Below, piece by piece: positions 27,775 to 37,910 of a stretch of DNA of 64,000 nucleotides. The DNA lies in assembly GCA_947455725.1 (NCBI GenBank), contig CANGPL010000001.1, forward strand, positions 1-64,000, read 5' to 3'. Origin of the DNA: Hyphomicrobiales bacterium. Its GTDB lineage: Bacteria > Pseudomonadota > Alphaproteobacteria > Rhizobiales > Beijerinckiaceae. The notes beneath the pieces were generated by a model. That model saw only the letters and a program-made list of their open reading frames with translations. It was not told the DNA's origin and ran no database searches. Position 1 is the first letter of the stretch; every line of letters starts with the position of its first letter. Both the position numbers and the translations under genes were made by a program.

Positions 27775-28155
27775 ATGATCGGTGGCGAGCTTTCAAGGCG
27801 TATCCTATTGGCGGAAGACGATAATGATATGCGTCGGTTCTTGGTCCGGGCGCTTGAACAGGCCGGATATCAGGTTGCCTCCTTCGATAATGGCCTTGCA
27901 GCCTATCACCGTCTGCGGGAAGAGCCGTTTGAACTACTCCTCACGGATATCGTAATGCCAGAAATGGACGGTATCGAGCTTGCCCGCCGCGCGACCGAGC
28001 TTGATCCGGAAATAAAGGTCATGTTTATCACTGGTTTTGCCGCTGTGGCGCTCAATCCGGATTCGGATGCGCCCAAGGATGCCAAGATACTGTCAAAGCC
28101 TTTCCATCTCAAAGACTTGGTCAACGAGGTCCAAAAGCTGCTCATCGCGGCCTAA
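27775..28155 (+). CDS. cpdR: Cell-cycle response regulator CpdR
   Basis: Single-domain receiver protein of 126 residues. Unphosphorylated CpdR primes ClpXP for degradation of cell-cycle proteins; phosphorylation by the CckA-ChpT relay switches it off. Acidic pocket AEDDND, phospho-acceptor D58 (in LLTDIVMPEMDG), the Thr/Ser switch in FITGFAAVAL and the conserved lysine in SKPFHLKDL are all present. The sequence is very close to the alphaproteobacterial CpdR consensus. ATG 27775 has GGAGTGAGG upstream. Confidence 0.95.
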   Translation: MIGGELSRRILLAEDDNDMRRFLVRALEQAGYQVASFDNGLAAYHRLREEPFELLLTDIVMPEMDGIELARRATELDPEIKVMFITGFAAVALNPDSDAPKDAKILSKPFHLKDLVNEVQKLLIAA

Positions 28156-28252: not shown

Positions 28253-28327
<75 letters not shown>

Positions 28328-28431: not shown

Positions 28432-28557
28432 ATGAAAATCCGCAACAGCTTAAAGAGCCTCCGCGAGCGTCACCGCGATAACCAGCTGGTTCGCCGCAAG
28501 GGCCGCGTTTATATCATCAACAAGACCCAGCCACGCTACAAGGCTCGTCAGGGCTAA
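28432..28557 (+). CDS. rpmJ: 50S ribosomal protein L36, cysteine-free type
   Basis: A 41-residue ribosomal protein beginning [16 protein letters not shown] and ending in YKARQG. It is the C-minus form, which lacks the zinc-ribbon cysteines, and therefore does not need zinc. Start ATG 28432 follows GGATACGGTT. The gene ends at 28557 and is followed by an intrinsic terminator. Four degenerate copies of parts of this gene lie within the next 9 kb, which makes this gene the left boundary of an accessory region. Confidence 0.95.
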
Positions 28558-28608
28558 TCGCCGAAGGCTGCTTTGTCGCGGCCCGTCCGGTTGATGTATT
28601 GAATTGTT

Positions 28609-28636
28609 AAAGCCTCGCGTAAGCGGGGCTTTTTGC
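28609..28636 (+). terminator. Rho-independent terminator of rpmJ
   Basis: AAGCCTCGC (28610-28618) pairs with GCGGGGCTT (28623-28631), loop GTAA, followed by TTTTGCG. Related terminator sequences follow the decayed rpmJ copies at 29842-29867 and 32680-32707, showing that the copied segment included this region. Confidence 0.85.
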
Positions 28637-28751
28637 GTTTTAGCTTGCGCAAGTCTGGCCTATCCATCGGGGTAGACATAGAGAGCCGATGGATTAAAGA
28701 TAAAGTCAAGTGTAGCTGATGTCATTGTTACGGAATTGTTGAGGCGTCAAA

Positions 28752-29672
28752 GTGGTGTATCGTCGTAGTTTATTATTTGGTTGGTTCATCGTATTCGCTG
28801 GCATCGCTACGGCCCAGTGCAAGGACAAAACCGTCAATGCAGCAGATCCTAAGAAACAAACATTTGATGGCTTTGCTTCGATTGCCATAACCAAAGATGA
28901 TATGAGTTATCCGGGTAGAGAATTTTCGCTTGGCCGTAGCGCTCTCGTCGGAAACGCAGTGGTGTTTTATCCACTTTCAAATGATTTCGGAATTCAGACG
29001 GACGTAGAATTAAATCAATTCAAATATGATAATAACGCCATCGATGGCAACTCCATGAATGGGGCTATTGGCTTTCATGGTTTCTGGCGTGATCCCGATA
29101 AGGGCCTTTTTGGTATTCAGGCAAATGCAGCGCGTACCCGAACTGATATAACCGGAGCACGTTACCAGAACGAAAGGTATCTTATTGGGCCTGAGGCTGC
29201 TTATTTTTCTGACCGCCATTCATTTTACGGCCGTGCAAATTACCTCTCATCTTCTTTAACACTCGATGCCGGATCTTTTAACCAGACCGCTCCGGCAACT
29301 GGCTTCTCACTGGAAAGCGAATGGCGTTATTTCATGTCCGATCATTTGATGGTTTCTGCTCTTGTAGGCTATGAAAGATTTTCCCGTTCTGCGCCCGGCC
29401 GCGTTGGATATACCTATGATTTTTACAGAGCTGGGATTATGGCTGAATATCAGATTCAGTCCAGTCCGATAAGCCTGTTTTCTCAGGCAAGTTTTCACAG
29501 GATTAGCTATATTAGCGATAAAGATATATCGAGTATCGAACTTGATGAATCCAGATTACTTATGGGCATAAAATATAGTATTAGCGATAAAACTCTTTTT
29601 CTTCGCGAGCGTTCTGGCGCTTCGTTAAAAAACTTTCCTGAATTTCACTATGTTGATGATATTGGAGGGTGA
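28752..29672 (+). CDS. Predicted outer-membrane beta-barrel protein
   Basis: A 306-residue exported protein. The N-terminus has a signal peptide (LLFGWFIVFAGIATAQC), followed by amphipathic alternating segments with frequent aromatic residues (GIQTDVELNQFKYD, FYGRANYLSSSLTLDAG, FSLESEWRYFM, FYRAGIMAEYQI), as in outer-membrane barrels. The extreme C-terminus (YVDDIGG) lacks the usual final Phe. Start is GTG 28752 (or 28755) behind GAGG. It forms the first module between rpmJ and its first decayed copy. I do not recognise a named family; a porin-like or autoaggregation role is only a guess. Confidence 0.6.
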   Translation: MVYRRSLLFGWFIVFAGIATAQCKDKTVNAADPKKQTFDGFASIAITKDDMSYPGREFSLGRSALVGNAVVFYPLSNDFGIQTDVELNQFKYDNNAIDGNSMNGAIGFHGFWRDPDKGLFGIQANAARTRTDITGARYQNERYLIGPEAAYFSDRHSFYGRANYLSSSLTLDAGSFNQTAPATGFSLESEWRYFMSDHLMVSALVGYERFSRSAPGRVGYTYDFYRAGIMAEYQIQSSPISLFSQASFHRISYISDKDISSIELDESRLLMGIKYSISDKTLFLRERSGASLKNFPEFHYVDDIGG

Positions 29673-29704
29673 TCGAGACAAAAAATTTTATTGAACAATC
29701 TCTC

Positions 29705-29801
29705 CTAGCGGTACCCCGATAACCATTTGTTTCGCCGCAGGGGTCACGTTTATATTATCAACAAGACCCAGAAGCAATACAAAGCGCGGCGGGGGTTATA
29801 A
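29705..29801 (+). pseudogene. rpmJ: Decayed rpmJ copy 1
   Basis: The segment from CGATAACC (29717) to the TAA at 29799-29801 aligns with the second half of rpmJ without gaps up to the tail. Its translation includes [16 protein letters not shown], very close to L36. The first half is scrambled and has no start codon. It is followed by a terminator-like stem (29842-29867) resembling that of rpmJ. Substitutions throughout show that it is an old copy or one from another strain. Confidence 0.8.
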
Positions 29802-30026
29802 TTAGCCGCTGATTGAGTTCAGAGTTTTGTGCGACCTTTGAAGCCCCGTTTACGCGGGACTTTTTGCGCTTCATGAACAGTCGGCCAGCCGCCAGTGTTA
29901 CCTGTGCAATTAAGAACGTTCGATAAGTACTATAAAAAAATTCATATTTGGAAATAACTTTAATTTGTTCTAAGATTGGGGATTATATTCGGACCGTTCT
30001 GTTCACAAGTGAGTTGGGTATTTCGT

Positions 30027-31763
30027 GTGATCCGATTAAGTTTAATAGTCTCTTTTCTCGCAATTCTGATGTTCAGCGGTGGTGTTTCGAAGGTTGCGTC
30101 GGCTGCTAATATAATATGTCCGGGGCAAGCTGTATCGGTGGTGACTTGGGGTGCAGATCACAAAACGAGGACCACCACTGTGACAGCCTGTAACGGCTCG
30201 GTCACCAAGTCCGTCGCGGTCATCCAACCCACAGCTGTTGAAACATGGGCCGTCGATCATATTACAAAAACCACTACCTTTACCTTCGGGGACGGGACGA
30301 CTACGCGCACTGTTGCTACCGTACAGCCGACTTCGGTCGTAACATGGGGGACGGACCGCATTACAAAGACGACGAAACTGATCTACGGCGATGGAACCAT
30401 TATCAGATCGACGACGGCCATACAGCCCACCATAACAGGAGGTGTTTATTCCGCACCTGTGTATGCTTCGGATTGGGCCCAATCTGGCTCGTTAACAAAG
30501 CCATCGGTTAGCCCGATGAGTTATGTCTACGGCGATGGTACGACCGGACAAATTGGAGCGGGTACGGCCTTGCTCCCCTTTGATCAATCCGCCCTTTCTG
30601 CGCGCAGCATCACGGATCCAAACGCTGTGGTTAAGTCGTCGACCAATAGAGTTTATGATTTGAGCTGGGGAACGCCTGACAAGATGGGACCGACATATGC
30701 GGCTATGTTCACCTCCGGTTCCTACACGTATCCGTCCGAATTTACGATGATGGGACACACGATCTCCGGACAATGCGTCGATGGCCCAGCTAATGGGGGA
30801 TGCGCTAACGGATTTGTCCTAGCGGCACCGCTATCAGACGTGATCGACGCGTATAATCAAGGATGGACGGGAAAGAACGTTAACGTTTTGATGTTTGATC
30901 AATATCACTGGACGATCGGGAATGGCGTTGCTGGTGGAGATTCCCATGGTATTACGACTATGTTTATTGCGAAACGCTATGCCATGGGCGCTAACTTACT
31001 CGGCTTGGACTTTTCTCTTGATTTGAATACCGGAAAGCCTCTCGGCGTCATTCGAGATTTTTCAGGTAGCGTTGCTGCAGGCGCAGCGATCCAAGTCATC
31101 AATATGAGTTTTGGAACAAATTATTGGAGTATCGTTGGCCGGACAGGCTCATCGATCCGTCGATACGATATTACTTATGTTGACAATGTAACGCGCTCAT
31201 ATGTTGCGGAAATCAATAACGTCATCGATGGAAGCATATCAATGACCGGGTTTAATGTCCGTGATGCCGTAGTTATTAAAGCTGCTGGTAATGACTCAAT
31301 ACCAGGAAATTTGGAAAATTATGCCAAAGCGCTGTCGGCCAATGCAACAATTTCACCCCGCCTCCTTATTGTGGGTGCTCTGACTAAAGCTGGTTCAGTC
31401 AGTTATCCTGCACGTATGGCCTCCTATTCGAACTATGCTGGCACGGTTACCGCCGTTCAAGACAGGTTTCTCGTCGCGAGCGGCACGGTGCCTTTTGCTG
31501 ATGGCGCGTTGGCCATCGATGGATATCCTGTCAGCTCCACGGGGAATGAGGGAACGTCTTATGCCGCACCTCGGGTGGCCGGATACGTCGCAGTCGTTCG
31601 TCAGAAATTTCCTAATTTGACCGCTGCGCGAACCGCCGATATCCTTTTATCGACTGCACGTTACGATACGCTCTCGTGTTATCCTTATTGTAACAAGGCT
31701 ATCTATGGTCAGGGGGAGGCCAGCCTTGGCCGTGCGCTGGCACCTGTCGGATATTTACGATAG
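30027..31763 (+). CDS. Secreted subtilisin-like serine peptidase (S8) with N-terminal 33-residue repeats
   Basis: A 578-residue exported protein: signal peptide (to about VASA), three 33-residue repeats in near-perfect 99-base phase (TWG/TWA motifs encoded at 30144, 30243 and 30342; consensus with DHITKTTT and GDGTT), a linker, then an S8 domain. Candidate triad: D291 (VLMFDQYHW), H307 (DSHGITTMFIA), S511 (EGTSYAAPRVAGY), with oxyanion N in KAAGND. D and H are only 16 residues apart, closer than usual. The protein ends YGQGEASLGRALAPVGYLR, the sequence that in S8 autotransporters precedes the barrel, but no barrel follows. I chose GTG 30027 by homology with the second S8 gene's leader; TTG 29976 would extend it. 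Confidence 0.82.
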   Translation: MIRLSLIVSFLAILMFSGGVSKVASAANIICPGQAVSVVTWGADHKTRTTTVTACNGSVTKSVAVIQPTAVETWAVDHITKTTTFTFGDGTTTRTVATVQPTSVVTWGTDRITKTTKLIYGDGTIIRSTTAIQPTITGGVYSAPVYASDWAQSGSLTKPSVSPMSYVYGDGTTGQIGAGTALLPFDQSALSARSITDPNAVVKSSTNRVYDLSWGTPDKMGPTYAAMFTSGSYTYPSEFTMMGHTISGQCVDGPANGGCANGFVLAAPLSDVIDAYNQGWTGKNVNVLMFDQYHWTIGNGVAGGDSHGITTMFIAKRYAMGANLLGLDFSLDLNTGKPLGVIRDFSGSVAAGAAIQVINMSFGTNYWSIVGRTGSSIRRYDITYVDNVTRSYVAEINNVIDGSISMTGFNVRDAVVIKAAGNDSIPGNLENYAKALSANATISPRLLIVGALTKAGSVSYPARMASYSNYAGTVTAVQDRFLVASGTVPFADGALAIDGYPVSSTGNEGTSYAAPRVAGYVAVVRQKFPNLTAARTADILLSTARYDTLSCYPYCNKAIYGQGEASLGRALAPVGYLR

Positions 31764-31949
31764 GGTGTCCCTCTCGCTTAGATTATTTATTATGATCTCG
31801 GGCATGTATTGAAGATTTAGAAAAAGCAACTTTTTCAAAAAATAATAGGGCGGCATTTTTTGTTGGTGATTAAGTTATCGTTAAAACGTTATACTAATCA
31901 ATATTAGAGCTTACTTGGAGAAGTAAGGCCTTAGCTGGATGATCGACGG

Positions 31950-32569
31950 GTTGCGGTGGTAAAGTCACTTGCGGAGTTTTTGTCGCGCAGGCAGCTACAA
32001 TCCCTCTTCGCGCCAAATACGCTCAACCTTCTTGCGATTGATCAATTAACCTTCGCTTCCCAAAAGCTCACAGATCTTGCCGTATCCGTATCGGCCATTT
32101 TATTCGACAAGCCTGATAACAGCTAAACGCTGATCGTCATCATTCTTTTATAAGGCAGCCCGATGCGGGCCGCCTCAAGAATCTCATATGTCCGTCGCTC
32201 GGATGTGCCGAGCTTTTGAGAAACTTGGACGACTGTACCCCTAAGTTTGCCGACGTTCAGATCTTAGGTTTAAAAAATCGTGGATTTCCTTTAGATCATT
32301 TTATCCGAATCCAGATCCACAACGATACTCTTAAGCCGCCGGTTCTCTTTCTCTATGACCTTCAACTCTGTCAGCTGTGGTCTTGCCTTCCCACCAAACT
32401 TCTTACACCAAGTATATAATAGGTCGCGTCGCCTCTCCCAGCAGTCCCGCAAGCCTTGGCAACATCCACCCCCAACTACCAAGTCCAGATCGACCTGCCG
32501 CAAAATCTGCAAACAGTCCTCGTCTGAAACCCGCTTCCGAGCCATCTCATCCCCCTCTATTGTTACCAA
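31950..32569 (-). mobile_element. IS3-family insertion sequence remnant
   Basis: Leftward reading shows OrfA starting MARKRVSDEDCLQILRQVDL (32545 downward), with KKFGGKARPQLTELKVIEKE and ENRRLKSIVVDLDSDKMI after a disturbed centre. OrfB fragments follow in shifted frames: QKLGTSERRTYEIL, GRYGYGKICELL and NRKKVERIWREEGL. Several frameshifts and stops, and loss of the catalytic DDE part, show that it is dead. I could not identify terminal inverted repeats. Confidence 0.8.
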
Positions 32570-32600
32570 TATGGTGGCTTAACTTTAGAGAACTAAGATA

Positions 32601-32645
32601 ATCAACACGTCCCAACCATGCTATAAGGCTCGTAAGGGCTAATCG
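32601..32645 (+). pseudogene. rpmJ: Decayed rpmJ copy 2 (3' end only)
   Basis: These 45 bases align without gaps to rpmJ 28516-28560, covering the last 13 codons, stop codon and three more bases; I count 39 of 45 identical. The sequence that follows (32646-32707) resembles what follows copy 1, including GAAGCCTCGTTTAC with a terminator-like stem. It stands directly between the IS3 remnant and the second S8 gene. Confidence 0.82.
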
Positions 32646-32813
32646 GCTAATGATAGAGTTTAGAGTGCTGCGCGAAGTTTGAAGCCTCGTTTACCCGGGG
32701 CATTTTACATTTCTAGATGATTATCAGATTGTAAATTTGAAAAATACGCTTAAAATAAAGAAAATTTGGATTTTTTATAAACTATATGCGTAAGTGAGTT
32801 CGGTTGTAAAATT

Positions 32814-35519
32814 ATGAATTTTCATGAAAAAATACCGAAACTAATTCTCGCAGTTTATCTTGTTTGTTTAGCATCCAAATCATTTGCTGCTGGCACCGTT
32901 GTTAAAAGAAATTATAACGTTGATAAAGAAACGGTCTACTATTCGGATAATACGAAAGTAATTTTAAGTTCTACCAGTAACGCTAAATCTTATAGCGGCT
33001 CGAATGAAATTGTAACCTATACGTTTGCGGACGGCACCGTGAATGTGGTGACAAATATCTCAAAGAGTAATGTAAAGTCTTTTAGTGGCTCGAATGAAGT
33101 CATAACCTATAAGTTTATGGACGGTACGACCAATGTGGTAAGCAATTCCTATACGAGCAGTGCGAAAACTTATAGCGGCTCAAGCGAAGTCCTAACCTAT
33201 AAATTTGCGGACGGCATGAAGAATGTGGTGATCAAACCTTTTATAAGTTTCATGAAATTATATAATGGTGGCAACGAGTCTGTAACCTATAACTTCGCAG
33301 ATGGTTCATCCAATTCTATAATAAATGCTGCTATAGACAGCACGAAATCTTATATTGGTTCTCAGGAATACGTAACTTATAAGTTTGCCGACGGAACGAG
33401 CAATCTGACAGTCAAATCAGCTATAGATAGCGCCATTTCATGGCGTTCAGACCATATCACTAAGACGACGGTATATAATTTCGCTGACGGTACAACTAAT
33501 AGGGTTCTAACGAAGGTACCTGGCAGCATTGGACTTCCGAGTTATTCTGGCGGTGTTGAGACGAAGGTAACTACGTATGGTGACGGAACAACGTCAACTG
33601 CCACTTTTAATGCAACACGCAAAGTAACGACCTATAGTGGACCATCTGAAATAATTACTTATCAGTTCAGTGACGGAACCATTAATCAGGTACTCAATAC
33701 TGCTTTGAGTAATACGACCACTTGGGCTGACGATCACGTCACAATGATAACAACTTATATCTTCTCTGACAGCACGACTAATCGAGTTTCATCGACGGTA
33801 CCTGGCAACATTGGACTTCCGAGTTATTCTGGCGGCGTTGAGACGAAGGTCACTACGTATGGTGACGGAACAGCGTCAACTGCCACTTTTAATGCAACAG
33901 GCCGGATAACGACCTATAGTGGATCGTCTGAAATAATTACTTATCAGTTCAGTGACGGTACCACTAATCAAGTAGTCAATACTGCTTTGAGTAATACGAC
34001 CACTTGGGCTGACGATCACGTCACGATGACTACAACTTATATCTTTCCTGACAGCACGACTAATCGAGTTTCATCGATAGTACCTGGTAGCATTGGACTT
34101 CCGAGTTATTCTCGCGGGGTTGAGACAAAGGTCACTACTTATGGTGATGGGACAACGTCAACTGCAACTTTCAACGCCATAGGCGCAACAACGACCTATA
34201 GCGGTTCTACTGCAATAGTTACTTATCAGTTCGCCGATGGCACGACAAATATCGTAACTAATATCGGGCAATTAACTTATAAGGCGCCAATCTTTACTGC
34301 TGCAATTTATCCGAATGATTGGAGTACTAACGGCGGCGTGAGCTTTCCTTCTACATCTGCCGCAACTAATACTGACGGAGACGCCAACTCAATCATAATT
34401 GAAGATGGATCCATATCACATCCCTTTAATCAATCGACGCTAACACCTAACGGTCCAACAGGTTCTGGCGCTATCAATGATCCAAATGCTGTAGTTAAAA
34501 CAGCGAATATAATTTATAATTTAACGTGGGGTAATCCAGATAAAAATGGTCCTTCGTACTCACTTATATTTCCGAGATCGACGACGAGATTGCCAAGTAA
34601 TTTTAATTGGCTTGGTATTTCTCTCAACGGCAGTAATACCTCCATCGGTGCAGCGCTTCTGCAACCAAATTTAGATGTTCTCACGGCGTGGAATCATGGA
34701 TGGACTGGGAAGGGTGAAAATTTACTCGTCCTTGATGATTTAAACGGATTAAATGCTGGAACTTCTTCACACGCTTTTGCTACTACTTTTATTGCAGGCT
34801 ATTATACGGCACACGGTTCAAACACATATATTTTAGATTATAATTTGACGGGTAATATTTATGCAACTAGCCCGTCCAAAATGACAGCAACACCCGCGTC
34901 AACATCGATTCAAATCATAAATGCGAGTTATGAAGTATTACCTTCAACAACGGTCGCTACTTCCCATATTAATTTTTATAATGGTGCCAGAAGTGTAGCT
35001 GATTTATCAGTTACTGACGCGACTATCGTTATGGCTGCTGGAAATGCTCCGAGCGGTTCGAGTGCCTCCGCAACAAGCGATAACGCCACCAGAATGGCAA
35101 TGGTAAATGACAGCAGCATAAACCCACGTTTAATTTTGGTTGGAGCAACAAATCTAAGCTTTCTTGGTTTTCCACAATTAGCTTCTTATAGCAACTATGC
35201 TGGACCTAAAATTGATGTTCAGTCGCGATTTTTGGTAGCTTCCGGCAATGTTCCATGGGCTTATACTGCTACAACAATTGGAAATAATATGCCGTCTTCA
35301 ACGTATGGTACGTCGTATGCTGCCCCATTAGTTGCAGGCTATGCTGCAATTGTTAGACAGAAATTTCCTAATCTAAGCGGTGCGAACGCAGCCGACATAC
35401 TTTTAGCTACAGCACGTTATGATACGCTCTCATGCTATCCTAATTGTGATAAAGCTCAATATGGTCAGGGAGAAGCTAGTCTAAGTCGTGCTTTAGCACC
35501 TGTCGGATATTTAAGATAG
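32814..35519 (+). CDS. Large secreted subtilisin-like peptidase (S8) with extensive N-terminal repeats
   Basis: A 901-residue exported protein. After a signal peptide (ending near SFAA) come five 30-residue repeats (pattern KSYSGSNE..TY.FADGT.N), then a longer unit repeated with a 282-base (94-residue) period, then an S8 domain. Candidate triad: D641 (LLVLDDLNG), H653 (TSSHAFATTFIA), S834 (YGTSYAAPLVAGY), oxyanion N in MAAGNAPSG. The Asp-His distance is very short (12 residues). It ends GQGEASLSRALAPVGYLR, nearly identical to the first S8 protein, again without a barrel. The gene is A+T-rich compared with the core genes. ATG 32814 lacks a strong ribosome-binding site. Confidence 0.82.
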   Translation: MNFHEKIPKLILAVYLVCLASKSFAAGTVVKRNYNVDKETVYYSDNTKVILSSTSNAKSYSGSNEIVTYTFADGTVNVVTNISKSNVKSFSGSNEVITYKFMDGTTNVVSNSYTSSAKTYSGSSEVLTYKFADGMKNVVIKPFISFMKLYNGGNESVTYNFADGSSNSIINAAIDSTKSYIGSQEYVTYKFADGTSNLTVKSAIDSAISWRSDHITKTTVYNFADGTTNRVLTKVPGSIGLPSYSGGVETKVTTYGDGTTSTATFNATRKVTTYSGPSEIITYQFSDGTINQVLNTALSNTTTWADDHVTMITTYIFSDSTTNRVSSTVPGNIGLPSYSGGVETKVTTYGDGTASTATFNATGRITTYSGSSEIITYQFSDGTTNQVVNTALSNTTTWADDHVTMTTTYIFPDSTTNRVSSIVPGSIGLPSYSRGVETKVTTYGDGTTSTATFNAIGATTTYSGSTAIVTYQFADGTTNIVTNIGQLTYKAPIFTAAIYPNDWSTNGGVSFPSTSAATNTDGDANSIIIEDGSISHPFNQSTLTPNGPTGSGAINDPNAVVKTANIIYNLTWGNPDKNGPSYSLIFPRSTTRLPSNFNWLGISLNGSNTSIGAALLQPNLDVLTAWNHGWTGKGENLLVLDDLNGLNAGTSSHAFATTFIAGYYTAHGSNTYILDYNLTGNIYATSPSKMTATPASTSIQIINASYEVLPSTTVATSHINFYNGARSVADLSVTDATIVMAAGNAPSGSSASATSDNATRMAMVNDSSINPRLILVGATNLSFLGFPQLASYSNYAGPKIDVQSRFLVASGNVPWAYTATTIGNNMPSSTYGTSYAAPLVAGYAAIVRQKFPNLSGANAADILLATARYDTLSCYPNCDKAQYGQGEASLSRALAPVGYLR
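33517..34270 (+). repeat. 282-bp tandem coding repeats
   Basis: The sequence TACCTGG followed by (C/T)A(G/A)CATTGGACTTCC begins at 33517, 33799 and 34081, exactly 282 bases apart. The first two units are near-identical and the third is partial. Each unit encodes 94 residues with PSYSGGVETKVTTYGDGT and TTTWADDHVTM segments. The near-identity at DNA level points to recent duplication or ongoing homogenisation, so unit number may vary between strains. Confidence 0.85.
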
Positions 35520-35529
35520 CAGAGCCGTC

Positions 35530-36180
35530 GTGATTAGATTGGCCATTCTGATCCTGAATTTATTGAGTATCATGACGCTAGTGGCTCATGCCGATATTTT
35601 AGAACCAATCAATACGGTAATTCCGTTATCCGTTAAGCCATACTTTTTAATGGGCGAACGCATACCGCGGCAGGAATGGTGGGCTTTTGATCAAAAAGCC
35701 TATTTTGCAATTACAAGTATCTCACATGATAGAAATACAATCTACCTAAATGGACAGTCACTAATATCAAAGCCATCAAGAGCCTGTTCCATCTATGATT
35801 CAACTGTTTGTTATAACGTTTCAAATTTTTATAACGCGTCCTATCCGCAATTCATTGCCTCAGGGTTTTATTCACCTAACGCTGACACAATAATTAGTGC
35901 GGGAATAAATTCAGGATATGCTTCTCCGAAGTTAACAGTTAGCCCACACGTCATGGTTGGTATAGCTAAACGCTTTTATATTGGTGATGTAGAAAGAAGA
36001 AATAGCCACATAATCGTTGAAGCTAATTCGTGGCTTGGAGGGTCATTAAAACATCGACCATGTTACGATAGCTTCGATCGTACTTATTACTGTGCAAACC
36101 TATCGGCATGGAGTGATTTTAATTATCAATTGTCAGAGCAATCTTACAGCATATTTATTTGGTATGAAAAATTATTTTAA
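35530..36180 (+). CDS. Exported protein of unknown function, coupled to the second S8 gene
   Basis: A 216-residue protein with a signal peptide (LAILILNLLSIMTLVAHA, cleavage about 22). The mature part is rich in Tyr, Ser and Asn, has cysteine pairs (RACSIYDSTVCY; RPCYDSFDRTYYC), and ends SIFIWYEKLF; the alternating pattern with terminal Phe resembles the insertion signal of outer-membrane barrels. It starts (GTG 35530) 10 bases after the S8 stop, so it is probably co-transcribed. I do not recognise a family. A small barrel or surface partner of the peptidase is inferred. Confidence 0.6.
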   Translation: MIRLAILILNLLSIMTLVAHADILEPINTVIPLSVKPYFLMGERIPRQEWWAFDQKAYFAITSISHDRNTIYLNGQSLISKPSRACSIYDSTVCYNVSNFYNASYPQFIASGFYSPNADTIISAGINSGYASPKLTVSPHVMVGIAKRFYIGDVERRNSHIIVEANSWLGGSLKHRPCYDSFDRTYYCANLSAWSDFNYQLSEQSYSIFIWYEKLF

Positions 36181-36246
36181 GCAATTATCGATGCCAAAAT
36201 AGCCCGAGTATTTACTCGCATAATTCCCATTCATCGCGACCATATC

Positions 36247-36600
36247 GTGAGTGGATTAGCCATCCAGCGACAACTTACCAGCCGTTATCTACAAGCACTT
36301 GCGAACATCGCGTGCGTGACTGTTTGTGCCAGCATGCGTACCGGAGATTGGCAGGTTACTGCTAAATTAGCCATGGCATGGTATCTGGAAATAAAGCATA
36401 AAGTGTCACGCGGTGAGCAACCGCGTGCTGTGGGCTGGCAGCAGTTGGTTGCCATCTATGTGGAACAGTTGGGTTAGCGTGCACGGCGCAGCTATCACAT
36501 GTATACCATATGTAGACATCTCAATCTGTTCTTCGGGCAGTTTAAGGATGTGCCCATGATCCCACCCGTTGTGATATTGGATTATTTGGCCCATAGGATA
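36247..36600 (+). pseudogene. Broken tyrosine-recombinase (integrase) N-terminus
   Basis: One frame, interrupted only by TAG at 36475-36477, reads RTGDWQVTAKLAMAWYLEI, KVSRGEQP, GWQQLVAIYVEQLG, then after the stop YHMYTICRHLNLFFGQFKDV. This is the pattern of the arm and core-binding (SAM-like) part of phage-type integrases. The catalytic domain is missing: the frame runs into the rpmJ copy at 36.6 kb. The assignment is by eye and moderately certain. If right, it is a relic of the enzyme that inserted these modules. Confidence 0.45.
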
Positions 36601-36605
36601 TGGTT

Positions 36606-36726
36606 ATGCAAATTCGCAACAGCGTCGAGAGCCTGCGTAGCCGCCTCCGTGAAACCGGCTAGTTCGCCGCAAAGGCCGCGTTTATATCATCAAAAAGACC
36701 CAACGACGCTGAAAAGTTCGTCAGAG
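36606..36726 (+). pseudogene. rpmJ: Decayed rpmJ copy 3 (near full length)
   Basis: The copy includes the rpmJ ribosome-binding region (GGATATGGTT) and start ATG 36606, reads MQIRNSVESLRSRLRETG and stops at TAG by a one-base loss. In the next frame it continues [15 protein letters not shown] to a TGA at 36709-36711. From 36662 to 36702 I count 39 of 41 bases identical to rpmJ. It is the best-preserved copy, so probably the most recent or the original displaced gene. Confidence 0.85.
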
Positions 36727-36883
36727 CTTTGCGAACATTCGACAGTCTTGCAAGTATTGCATTGATCTTGATTACTTTGGCATTAATTCAAGCTCCGGTC
36801 CGTAGCGGCTTTTTTTGACGACGAGAGATTTAACGATTTAGAATCTCGACTTCTCTAGCCAAAAGGGACATGGCCGACATGGC

Positions 36884-37189
36884 GTGGGCAATCAAATGAG
36901 ACTGACTGCTGAGATTGCTATTCGATCTGTCTTTGATGCATCCGATGCTGGCCGTATCCACTTCGTACAAGTCATAGTGCGGCTGGTGGATGCTCAGTTT
37001 GAAGCCTACAATGTTGATTACCGTACGGGCCGGATCTCTTGTTACCGGTACGGTGATTCCGTTGTTGAGCTTGGATCCGATCGAACGATAATAAAGATCG
37101 CTGATCGTTTTGATGTTAATGCGTCAAAAGCAGTAATTTGCAATGCACACGAGGGGCGTGTTAAATTTTCTGACTTCTTAGTGCTATGA
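36884..37189 (+). CDS. Hypothetical protein between decayed rpmJ copies 3 and 4
   Basis: A 101-residue reading frame from GTG 36884 (or ATG 36896, 97 residues). There are no spans, signal peptide or motif that I recognise; it looks like a small soluble mixed alpha/beta protein (FVQVIVRLVDAQFEAYNVDY, IIKIADRFDVNASKAVI). A possible ribosome-binding site is absent for GTG and weak for ATG. It may be a genuine cassette gene or a gene remnant. Downstream, 37205-37290 contains a short rightward fragment without a start. Confidence 0.35.
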   Translation: MGNQMRLTAEIAIRSVFDASDAGRIHFVQVIVRLVDAQFEAYNVDYRTGRISCYRYGDSVVELGSDRTIIKIADRFDVNASKAVICNAHEGRVKFSDFLVL

Positions 37190-37324
37190 CAACAGACCAG
37201 ATGCATAGGCTATATGGTCTGGATTGCGGGAAGGCTTGTCACCTATCTAGATGAACGCGGCGAAATGCATATTGAGTGTTTCCCACAATAAAAAATGCGG
37301 CGCCTATTTTTTAGCTAATGGTAA

Positions 37325-37386
37325 GTGCCGTTTTTATTTCATCGTGAAGACTTAGCCGGACTAGGAGGCTCGTTAGGACTTATCCG
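37325..37386 (+). pseudogene. rpmJ: Decayed rpmJ copy 4
   Basis: The stretch reads GKCRFYFIVKT before a stop, against [11 protein letters not shown] in L36. From 37347 onward, 28 of 39 aligned bases match the last part of rpmJ by my count, including GGCTCGT.AGG at the same relative position. It is the most degraded copy and closes the fourth module. The remainder of the 37190-37522 gap shows no gene that I can support. Confidence 0.6.
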
Positions 37387-37522: not shown

Positions 37523-37910
37523 ATGAAGCTCGGTTACACCATTTTTTATGTTAACGATGTAGAGGCCTCATTGACCTTCTTTGAAAAGGCATTTGGCTTA
37601 CCAAGGCGATTTTATCACGAAAGCGGCTATGGAGAGGTGGAAACAGGGAGTACCGCGTTAGGCTTCGCTAGCCATGATTTTTGATCTTCTAATCTTCCGG
37701 CGGGGTATATAACGGCATATGGTTCATCTATTCCTCTCGGAATGGAAATCGCATTGGTTACCGATGATGTAGAAGCGGCTTTTCATAAGGCAATATCTGC
37801 AGGAGCGACACTTCTCAAAAAAGTCAATTAAAAAGCCTTGGGGTCAAACAGTCGCTTATGTTCGTTGCCCCGATGGTTTGTTGGTCGAATTGTGTTCACC
37901 TCTTGGGTAA
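37523..37910 (+). pseudogene. Broken VOC (glyoxalase-like) family gene
   Basis: From ATG 37523, behind GGAGAGG, the frame reads MKLGYTIFYVNDVEASLTFF with EKAFGLPRRFYHESGYGEVE, a typical glyoxalase/bleomycin-resistance (VOC) start. TGA at 37682-37684 interrupts it. The same frame then continues with [18 protein letters not shown] and [10 protein letters not shown], and near 37828 a frameshift moves the C-terminal part ([16 protein letters not shown]) out of frame. Two independent lesions make it a pseudogene. Its decay and position mark the right edge of the disturbed region. Confidence 0.85.

What the first reader, a model, noticed from the sequence alone, without database searches (positions are those of the whole stretch)
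28432..37386. Serial accessory modules bounded by decayed copies of rpmJ
One intact rpmJ (28432-28557) is followed by four degenerate copies of parts of it: 29705-29801, 32601-32645, 36606-36726 and 37325-37386. Counted by eye, copy 2 matches 39/45 bases, part of copy 3 39/41, and copy 4 28/39. Copies 1 and 2 also carry the terminator-like region behind the gene. The copies separate four modules: an outer-membrane protein; an S8 peptidase and IS3 remnant; a second S8 peptidase with a small exported protein and integrase relic; and a hypothetical gene. This is what repeated integration at the rpmJ 3' end would leave, each event restoring the gene and displacing the older tail. Alternative: repeated segmental duplication.
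Basis: partly seen in the sequence, partly recalled or inferred. Interest (0 to 1): 0.8.

Follow-up and report, generated by a model that had tools for sequence, protein, structure and literature searches.

The report
Displaced rpmJ copies mark serial insertions
Behind one ribosomal-protein gene this bacterium seems to have stacked up gene blocks one after another, each arrival leaving a decaying copy of that gene as a boundary mark; stacking of this kind is known, but here the mark is a ribosomal-protein gene.

Summary
Behind intact rpmJ (28432-28557) lie four decayed same-strand copies, near 29700-29871, 32598-32715, 36593-36814 and 37323-37384. Each scores above the best chance match in 60 shuffles. 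They separate four modules.

Relatives show the empty site. In G007 and G001, rpmJ and its terminator are followed directly by a glyoxalase-like (VOC) gene; the window has that gene, broken, just behind the last copy. G009 and G002 each carry one decayed copy with other cargo. The eight readable genus genomes, the window's included, have six kinds of first gene behind rpmJ. Three of the eight have other cargo but no detectable copy.

Copies 1-3 carry terminator types that the intact gene lacks, and the two S8 proteins are only 49% identical. Separate arrivals fit better than segmental duplication, though the rpmJ coding parts alone do not tell lineages apart.

I favour recombination anchored on the conserved rpmJ side with a non-homologous second joint. 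A site-specific recombinase is not excluded.

The parts
27775..28155 (+). response regulator, part of the conserved left side
   Evidence: Pfam Response_reg E 8.2e-23; reported upstream of rpmJ in G003, G004, G005, G006, G007 and G009, not reported in the ORF lists of G001 and G002, not seen in G010 whose contig starts at the tRNA
28253..28327 (+). tRNA-Val(gac), part of the conserved left side
   Evidence: ARAGORN; found before rpmJ in all 10 genus genomes in which rpmJ was found, in G007 cut by a contig end
28432..28557 (+). intact rpmJ (ribosomal protein L36), head of the array
   Evidence: the only intact copy found in the genome
28609..28639 (+). terminator-like stretch of the intact rpmJ, unlike that of G006, G007 and G009
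   Evidence: sequence, alignment
28752..29672 (+). module 1: outer-membrane beta-barrel protein
   Evidence: Pfam OMP_b-brl E 8.1e-8; distant homologs in G001 (35%) and G004 (31%) only, of 12 genus genomes
29700..29871 (+). rpmJ copy 1 with terminator
   Evidence: 128 bits to G006 rpmJ plus terminator, 78 to the own one, chance maximum 32.6
29976..31763 (+). module 2: S8 peptidase A
   Evidence: Pfam Peptidase_S8 E 6.5e-17
32291..32569 (-). transposase relic next to copy 2
   Evidence: Pfam HTH_Tnp_1 E 1.1e-4, below the curated cut-off
32598..32715 (+). rpmJ copy 2 (3' part) with terminator
   Evidence: 94 bits to G009, 52.5 to the own gene
32814..35519 (+). module 3: S8 peptidase B with N-terminal repeats
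   Evidence: Pfam Peptidase_S8 E 5.9e-11
35530..36180 (+). module 3: 216-aa partner of the S8 gene, probably exported
   Evidence: homologs lie beside the S8 gene at its other locus in G003, G004, G006, G007, G010 and contig 19 of this genome; export is inferred from the N-terminus
36253..36594 (+). module 3: N-terminal relic of a tyrosine integrase, ending at copy 3
   Evidence: 32% to residues 45-158 of the 422-aa G002 integrase, E 1.1e-12, one TAG inside
36593..36814 (+). rpmJ copy 3, whole gene from -13, with a G001/G005-type terminator
   Evidence: 121 bits to the own gene, G009 and G010 over 36593-36728, and 121 bits to G005 over 36606-36814; no similarity left of -13
36884..37189 (+). 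module 4: 101-aa hypothetical protein
   Evidence: only a sub-threshold Pfam match (DUF1398, E 0.062)
37323..37384 (+). rpmJ copy 4 (3' part), the most decayed
   Evidence: 42.5 bits, chance maximum 32.6 in 60 shuffles
37523..37907 (+). decayed VOC (glyoxalase-like) gene, the ancestral right neighbour of rpmJ
   Evidence: 75% to the G007 protein, with stops inside; in G007 and G001 the gene follows rpmJ directly

Best explanation
This is a displacement array, an additive genomic island with a constant left side (tRNA-Val, rpmJ) and a variable right side. Ancestrally rpmJ and its terminator were followed directly by the VOC gene. Several times, DNA from relatives with their own rpmJ, terminator and following cargo entered. 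It recombined on the conserved side, in or upstream of rpmJ, and joined without homology at its other end, in or just before the resident rpmJ. The incoming rpmJ part became the working gene behind the resident upstream region; the old copy was pushed downstream, lost its promoter and decayed. Shown: the empty site, the copies, their differing terminators, the variable cargo and the variable left ends. Inferred: that homologous recombination on one side drives it (linear DNA with an illegitimate second joint, or a circle with one crossover), the donors, and the order of events.
For: Empty site in G007 and G001. Four copies above chance in the window, one each in G009 and G002. tRNA-Val constant before rpmJ in 10 of 10 genomes, six kinds of first gene behind it in 8 readable ones. 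Copies 1 and 2 carry the terminator type of G006, G007 and G009, copy 3 that of G001/G005, the intact gene neither. Left ends differ, from -13 to +82. The integrase relic is cut at the copy 3 joint. The S8 pair also exists at another fixed locus in six genus genomes, so that cargo belongs to the genus's own gene pool. The same pattern and explanations of this kind are in print for T6SS and rhs loci (PMC5361080, PMC2935791, passages).
Against: rpmJ alone shows tail-only copies among 417 gene ends tested in 483 kb; a general recombination process should hit other genes too. Three of 8 readable genomes (G003, G005, G010) have other cargo without a detectable copy (for G003 only about 1 kb is readable). 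In the coding part copy 1 matches the own rpmJ best (87 of 121 against 85 of 121 for G001 and G005), and the other copies do not single out a lineage. Identities do not fall in order along the array. No genome with rpmJ followed by this OMP or S8 gene, the expected donor, was found in the genus. No uptake or recombination was observed; ComEC in 11 of 12 genomes is only permissive, as it also rings in E. coli.
Confidence: 0.5

Rival explanations
1. Site-specific integration: small islands, perhaps served in trans by tyrosine recombinases, use rpmJ as attachment site, bring a replacement rpmJ end or a whole gene, and leave the old one at the other junction.
For: Only rpmJ is affected among 417 gene ends. 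G002 has two phage-type integrase genes behind rpmJ, and the window has an integrase relic in module 3. rpmJ holds the palindrome AACCAGCTGGTT (+49 to +60), near the left ends of copy 1 and the G009 copy. Additive islands with repeats of a tRNA end are known (PMC10872708, passages).
Against: Left ends are not at one place, and copy 3 includes the whole gene and Shine-Dalgarno region. Duplicated stretches run on through the terminator. The modules nearest the intact gene in the window and in G009 hold one gene and no recognisable integrase. The integrase relic breaks off at the joint instead of lying whole beside it. The phage and plasmid searches showed no carrier: matches in 5 of 50,697 phage records, all below 60% identity, and in 54 of 72,556 plasmid records, of which the 20 listed are mostly large replicons or distant genes.
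Confidence: 0.3
2. One transfer of a ready-made array: the stack was built in another lineage and arrived here in one piece between rpmJ and VOC.
For: No relative carries an intermediate with a subset of these same modules at rpmJ. Copy identities show no clear age order.
Against: It only moves the stepwise build-up to a donor. No genome with the array was found among the 12 of the genus. Copy 4 next to VOC fits the resident gene.
Confidence: 0.12
3. Segmental duplication within the genome, with the modules being duplicated and diverged blocks.
For: Two modules both hold S8 genes behind an rpmJ copy; the last 129 bases of the two S8 genes are 80% identical.
Against: Copies 1-3 have terminators unlike that of the intact gene. 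Over their last 420 residues the S8 proteins are 49% identical, within the 38-52% range to S8 genes elsewhere in the genus, and the tree does not make them sisters (split support 90/89, not at the tool's starred level). The other modules share no cargo with each other. The empty site in relatives does not speak for it or against it.
Confidence: 0.06
4. Chance similarity or an assembly artefact of a metagenome assembly.
For: The genome is a 128-contig draft, 90.5% complete.
Against: Scores lie above every shuffle. Copies are decayed and differ from the intact gene, and independent genomes G009 and G002 show the same kind of copy.
Confidence: 0.02

Closest known systems
Sequential displacement of T6SS effector-immunity modules in Vibrio (PMC5361080; abstract and passages seen)
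   Same: Conserved upstream anchor, new module inserted behind it, older gene ends shifted downstream; one-sided homologous recombination with an illegitimate joint was proposed there
   Different: There the displaced parts are effector ends and immunity genes; here the displaced part is a ribosomal-protein gene and the cargo is unrelated to it
C-terminal tip displacement of rhs genes (PMC2935791; passages seen)
   Same: Strings of displaced gene fragments of varying length behind an intact gene, each with other cargo
   Different: rhs cargo is part of the protein, and the core fragments are nearly identical; here the cargo genes are separate and the copies are decayed
Additive flexible genomic islands with tRNA-end repeats in Methylophilaceae (PMC10872708; passages seen)
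   Same: Variable stacked cargo at one site, marked by repeats of the end of a host gene
   Different: There 20 bases of a tRNA gene; here 48 to about 220 bases of a protein gene, with its terminator
Tycheposons (the word seen in PMC10872708 passages; otherwise recalled)
   Same: Cargo at a fixed chromosomal site
   Different: Bounded by a tRNA and with a tyrosine recombinase; not seen here as a working gene

Membership tests
additive genomic island | same junction empty in some relatives and filled with different cargo in others | tested here: met
   empty in G007 and G001, filled in G000, G002, G003, G005, G009 and G010
additive genomic island | repeats of the site's host gene between modules | tested here: met
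   four copies in the window, one each in G009 and G002; none detected in G003, G005 and G010
site-specific integrative element | one core sequence at the left end of all displaced copies | tested here: not met
   left ends from -13 to +82; decay may hide part of this, but not for copy 3
site-specific integrative element | integrase gene in the element | tested here: inconclusive
   two integrase genes behind rpmJ in G002, a relic in window module 3, none recognised in the other window modules or the G009 module
displacement array of the T6SS or rhs kind | conserved upstream anchor and displaced gene ends of varying length downstream | tested here: met
displacement array of the T6SS or rhs kind | anchor is a toxin or effector gene whose end varies | tested here: not met
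   the anchor is rpmJ, so it is not a member of those families; it may work like them
displacement array of the T6SS or rhs kind | homologous recombination on the anchor side shown by experiment | not testable with these tools
   sequence comparison only
tandem segmental duplication | modules are copies of each other with copies of the present rpmJ and terminator | tested here: not met
   terminators differ; S8 proteins 49% identical

The most novel reading that the evidence does not exclude
A dedicated cassette site: in this genus rpmJ works as the entry point for small, often single-gene cassettes, each carrying its own rpmJ and terminator, inserted by an unidentified recombinase acting in or beside rpmJ, so that the cell always keeps one working ribosomal gene at the head of a growing array.
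Probability: 0.2. Interest if true: 0.7.

Novelty: new variant of a known kind. Interest (0 to 1): 0.45.

Why it matters
Stacked islands known to me are marked by tRNA ends or toxin-gene tails. Here a ribosomal-protein gene serves as the boundary mark. The marks give each module an edge, a hint of the donor lineage and a rough age, so the build-up of an accessory region can be read step by step. If the driver is plain recombination at a conserved-to-variable border, similar arrays should exist behind other conserved genes and can be searched for by their displaced gene ends.

Tried and rejected
Mobile carriers of rpmJ: tblastn of the 41-aa protein gave 5 of 50,697 phage records, all below 60% identity, and 54 of 72,556 plasmid records, of which 20 were listed: the best (80-90%) are replicons of 2.8 to 4.6 Mb of Methylobacterium, Sinorhizobium and Shinella. 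Nothing there points to a carrier.

Insertion at tRNA-Val: no displaced tRNA pieces in the window or in the ten relative loci searched.

Similar arrays elsewhere in the family: of 397 genomes 377 had a match and only G000, G002, G009 and G402 had two, but only two candidates per genome were scored and other genera are about 80% identical, so decayed copies there could be missed. The second G402 match is 32 bases on another contig. In 61 loci of other genera (several from one genome; 41 of them only about 3 kb long) I saw no convincing copy. Two weak matches in G122 (E 0.002 and 0.024) were put down to chance by eye; 14 loci gave minus-strand matches at E about 0.001 inside rpmJ itself, from its palindrome; other matches were weaker.

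Left ends: for the G009 copy an extension to about -7 is suggestive at one of seven lengths tried (2 of 400 random positions; 7 to 173 of 400 at the others), and the MAPEG gene's own downstream sequence in G001 gives a partial match as well. For the G002 copy 15 to 155 of 400 random positions did as well, for copy 1 77 to 192; copies 2 and 4 gave nothing.

Papers: none held rpmJ, integration site and genomic island together; none held four of five terms on ribosomal-protein integration hotspots; four held rpmJ, hotspot and horizontal gene transfer, none about this by title; a looser search listed 12 of 5,902 papers, none relevant by title.

Full report
What is there. The window lies in a 125.5-kb contig of a 2.98-Mb, 128-contig genome, 90.5% complete. 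Two relatives of the same genus can be named by inference: records JAPJMW010000010 (Beijerinckiaceae bacterium MAG11) and CANGLU010000039 (Hyphomicrobiales bacterium) have the contig lengths, 30,900 and 25,336 bases, of G009 contig 58 and G007 contig 39. Intact rpmJ is at 28432-28557, 104 bases behind tRNA-Val. Three decayed copies were found by a plain search of the own genome. With nine genus rpmJ genes plus the 104 bases behind each as queries, four copies are found, at 29700-29871, 32598-32715, 36593-36814 and 37323-37384, with best scores of 128, 94, 121 and 42.5 bits. The best chance score in 60 dinucleotide shuffles of the window was 32.6.

Control for generality. In 483 kb of this genome I tested the last 130 bases of 417 genes (100 aa or more, plus rpmJ added by hand) for same-strand copies within 12 kb downstream. 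Five genes had one. Three are tandem paralogs, one is the S8 pair, and only rpmJ has copies without a paralogous gene. So the pattern belongs to rpmJ in the part that I saw, about a sixth of the genome.

Empty and alternative sites. G007 and G001 have rpmJ, a terminator and directly the VOC gene; in G001 the next gene reads as the homolog of window 40365. In the window the VOC gene, broken by stops, starts at 37523, about 140 bases behind copy 4. So close to 8.8 kb was added between rpmJ and VOC. G010 has about 5 kb of other genes between rpmJ and VOC (two LysR regulators, a short-chain dehydrogenase and a glutathione S-transferase among them) and no detectable rpmJ copy. G009 has rpmJ, a MAPEG gene, a decayed rpmJ copy with terminator (77.8% of 162 bases), and an ALTTAQ-repeat protein running to the contig end. 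G002 has rpmJ on contig 64, followed by a 142-aa gene, a PepSY protein and two integrase genes, and a decayed copy (89% of 113 bases) on contig 42, on the same contig as the homolog of window gene 40725; that the two contigs join is inferred. G003 and G005 share their first gene (81% of 124 aa; DUF305 is my reading, from no call). G004 and G006 end at or just behind rpmJ. In G008 and G011 no rpmJ was found: their only matches are terminator-like stretches and one of 27 bases in G011. So 8 of 12 genus genomes are readable, the window's own included: 3 of 8 have decayed copies, 2 of 8 are empty, 3 of 8 (G003, G005, G010) have other cargo and no detectable copy, and by my reading there are six kinds of first gene. 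tRNA-Val precedes rpmJ in all 10 genomes where rpmJ was found. In sister genera g46 and g48 the genes behind rpmJ are mostly shared within the genus; G056 of g46 shared none.

Where the copies come from. The terminator of the intact gene differs from that of G006, G007 and G009. Copies 1 and 2 carry their type and therefore score higher against them (128 and 94 bits) than against the own gene (78 and 52). Copy 3 scores the same, 121 bits, against the own gene, G009, G010 and G005, but its terminator is of the G001/G005 type. Copy 1 reads Lys-Gln where the own gene reads Pro-Arg and G001, G003 and G005 read Lys-Arg. In the coding part alone the copies do not single out a lineage: copy 1 matches the own gene at 87 of 121 positions and G001 and G005 at 85. 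So the terminators, not the coding parts, show that the copies are not simple duplicates of the present gene.

The S8 genes. Over their last 420 residues the two proteins are 49% identical, within the range of 38 to 52% that they show to S8 proteins elsewhere in the genus. Those lie at another fixed locus in G003, G004, G006, G007, G010 and contig 19 of this genome (I read its neighbours as ubiB and coaBC, names recalled). The tree does not make the two sisters, with split support 90/89, below the tool's starred level. Their last 129 bases, however, are 80% identical. Rpm copies at about 80% would be younger than a split at 49% protein identity unless the S8 genes evolve very fast (inference); this speaks against tandem duplication of rpmJ with S8.

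How it works. If a recombinase cut at one core, all copies should begin there. Copy 3 begins sharply at -13: to its left, similarity to the rpmJ upstream region is below the random mean at all seven lengths tried. Copy 1 can be followed to about +19 to +28, the G009 copy to +37, the G002 copy to +63, copy 4 to +67, and copy 2 to +82, where a transposase relic abuts. Decay can shorten a copy but cannot lengthen copy 3. The integrase relic before copy 3 stops at that joint, at residue 158 of 422 of its relative, as if a broken end had been joined there, although a later deletion would look the same. I therefore favour recombination on the conserved side with a non-homologous second joint. For Vibrio T6SS arrays one-sided recombination was proposed (PMC5361080, passages), for rhs loci a circular intermediate (PMC2935791, passages). 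Against it stands that rpmJ alone is affected, which a recombinase explains better. The question is open, and a confidence of one half says so.

Likely function. The cargo (S8 peptidases with a partner, outer-membrane barrel; elsewhere MAPEG, VOC, GST, PepSY) looks like ordinary accessory genes. The site may be tolerated because rpmJ is a one-gene unit with its own terminator (inference).

Novelty. Stacked islands marked by the end of a host gene are known, for example with tRNA-Lys repeats in Methylophilaceae (PMC10872708, passages). A ribosomal-protein gene in this role was not found in the searches, which cover only open-licence papers. I call it a new variant of a known kind.

Noticed in passing
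window 29976-31763 and 32814-36180; L140-L143, L145, L146: A fast-diverging S8 peptidase family with a 216-aa partner sits at another fixed locus in six genus genomes; in this genome's contig 19 the partner there is split into two frames while the copies behind rpmJ are open. The C-terminal end (YGQGEASLSRALAPVGYLR or close to it) is shared by 9 of the 11 S8 pieces read, one of the other two being altered (G003) and one a piece without the C-terminus.
   Followed up: partly
window 32814-34280: S8 peptidase B has a long N-terminal stretch of repeats (tyrosine, serine, glycine and FADGT-like motifs) that peptidase A has in shorter form.
   Followed up: no
window 28480-28491: rpmJ holds the perfect 12-base palindrome AACCAGCTGGTT, near the left ends of copy 1 and of the G009 copy; a possible core if a recombinase is involved.
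   Followed up: no
L036 13616-15901 (G009 contig 58): At least 762 aa of ALTTAQ repeats (PF20080) run into the contig end behind the displaced rpmJ copy.
   Followed up: no
L040 (G002 contig 42), upstream of the displaced rpmJ copy: Genes with PRTase_2/TRSP, StiP/PELOTA_1 and C-C_Bond_Lyase domains (Pfam describes StiP as tellurite-like stress resistance) lie before the displaced copy, probably cargo of a larger insertion.
   Followed up: no
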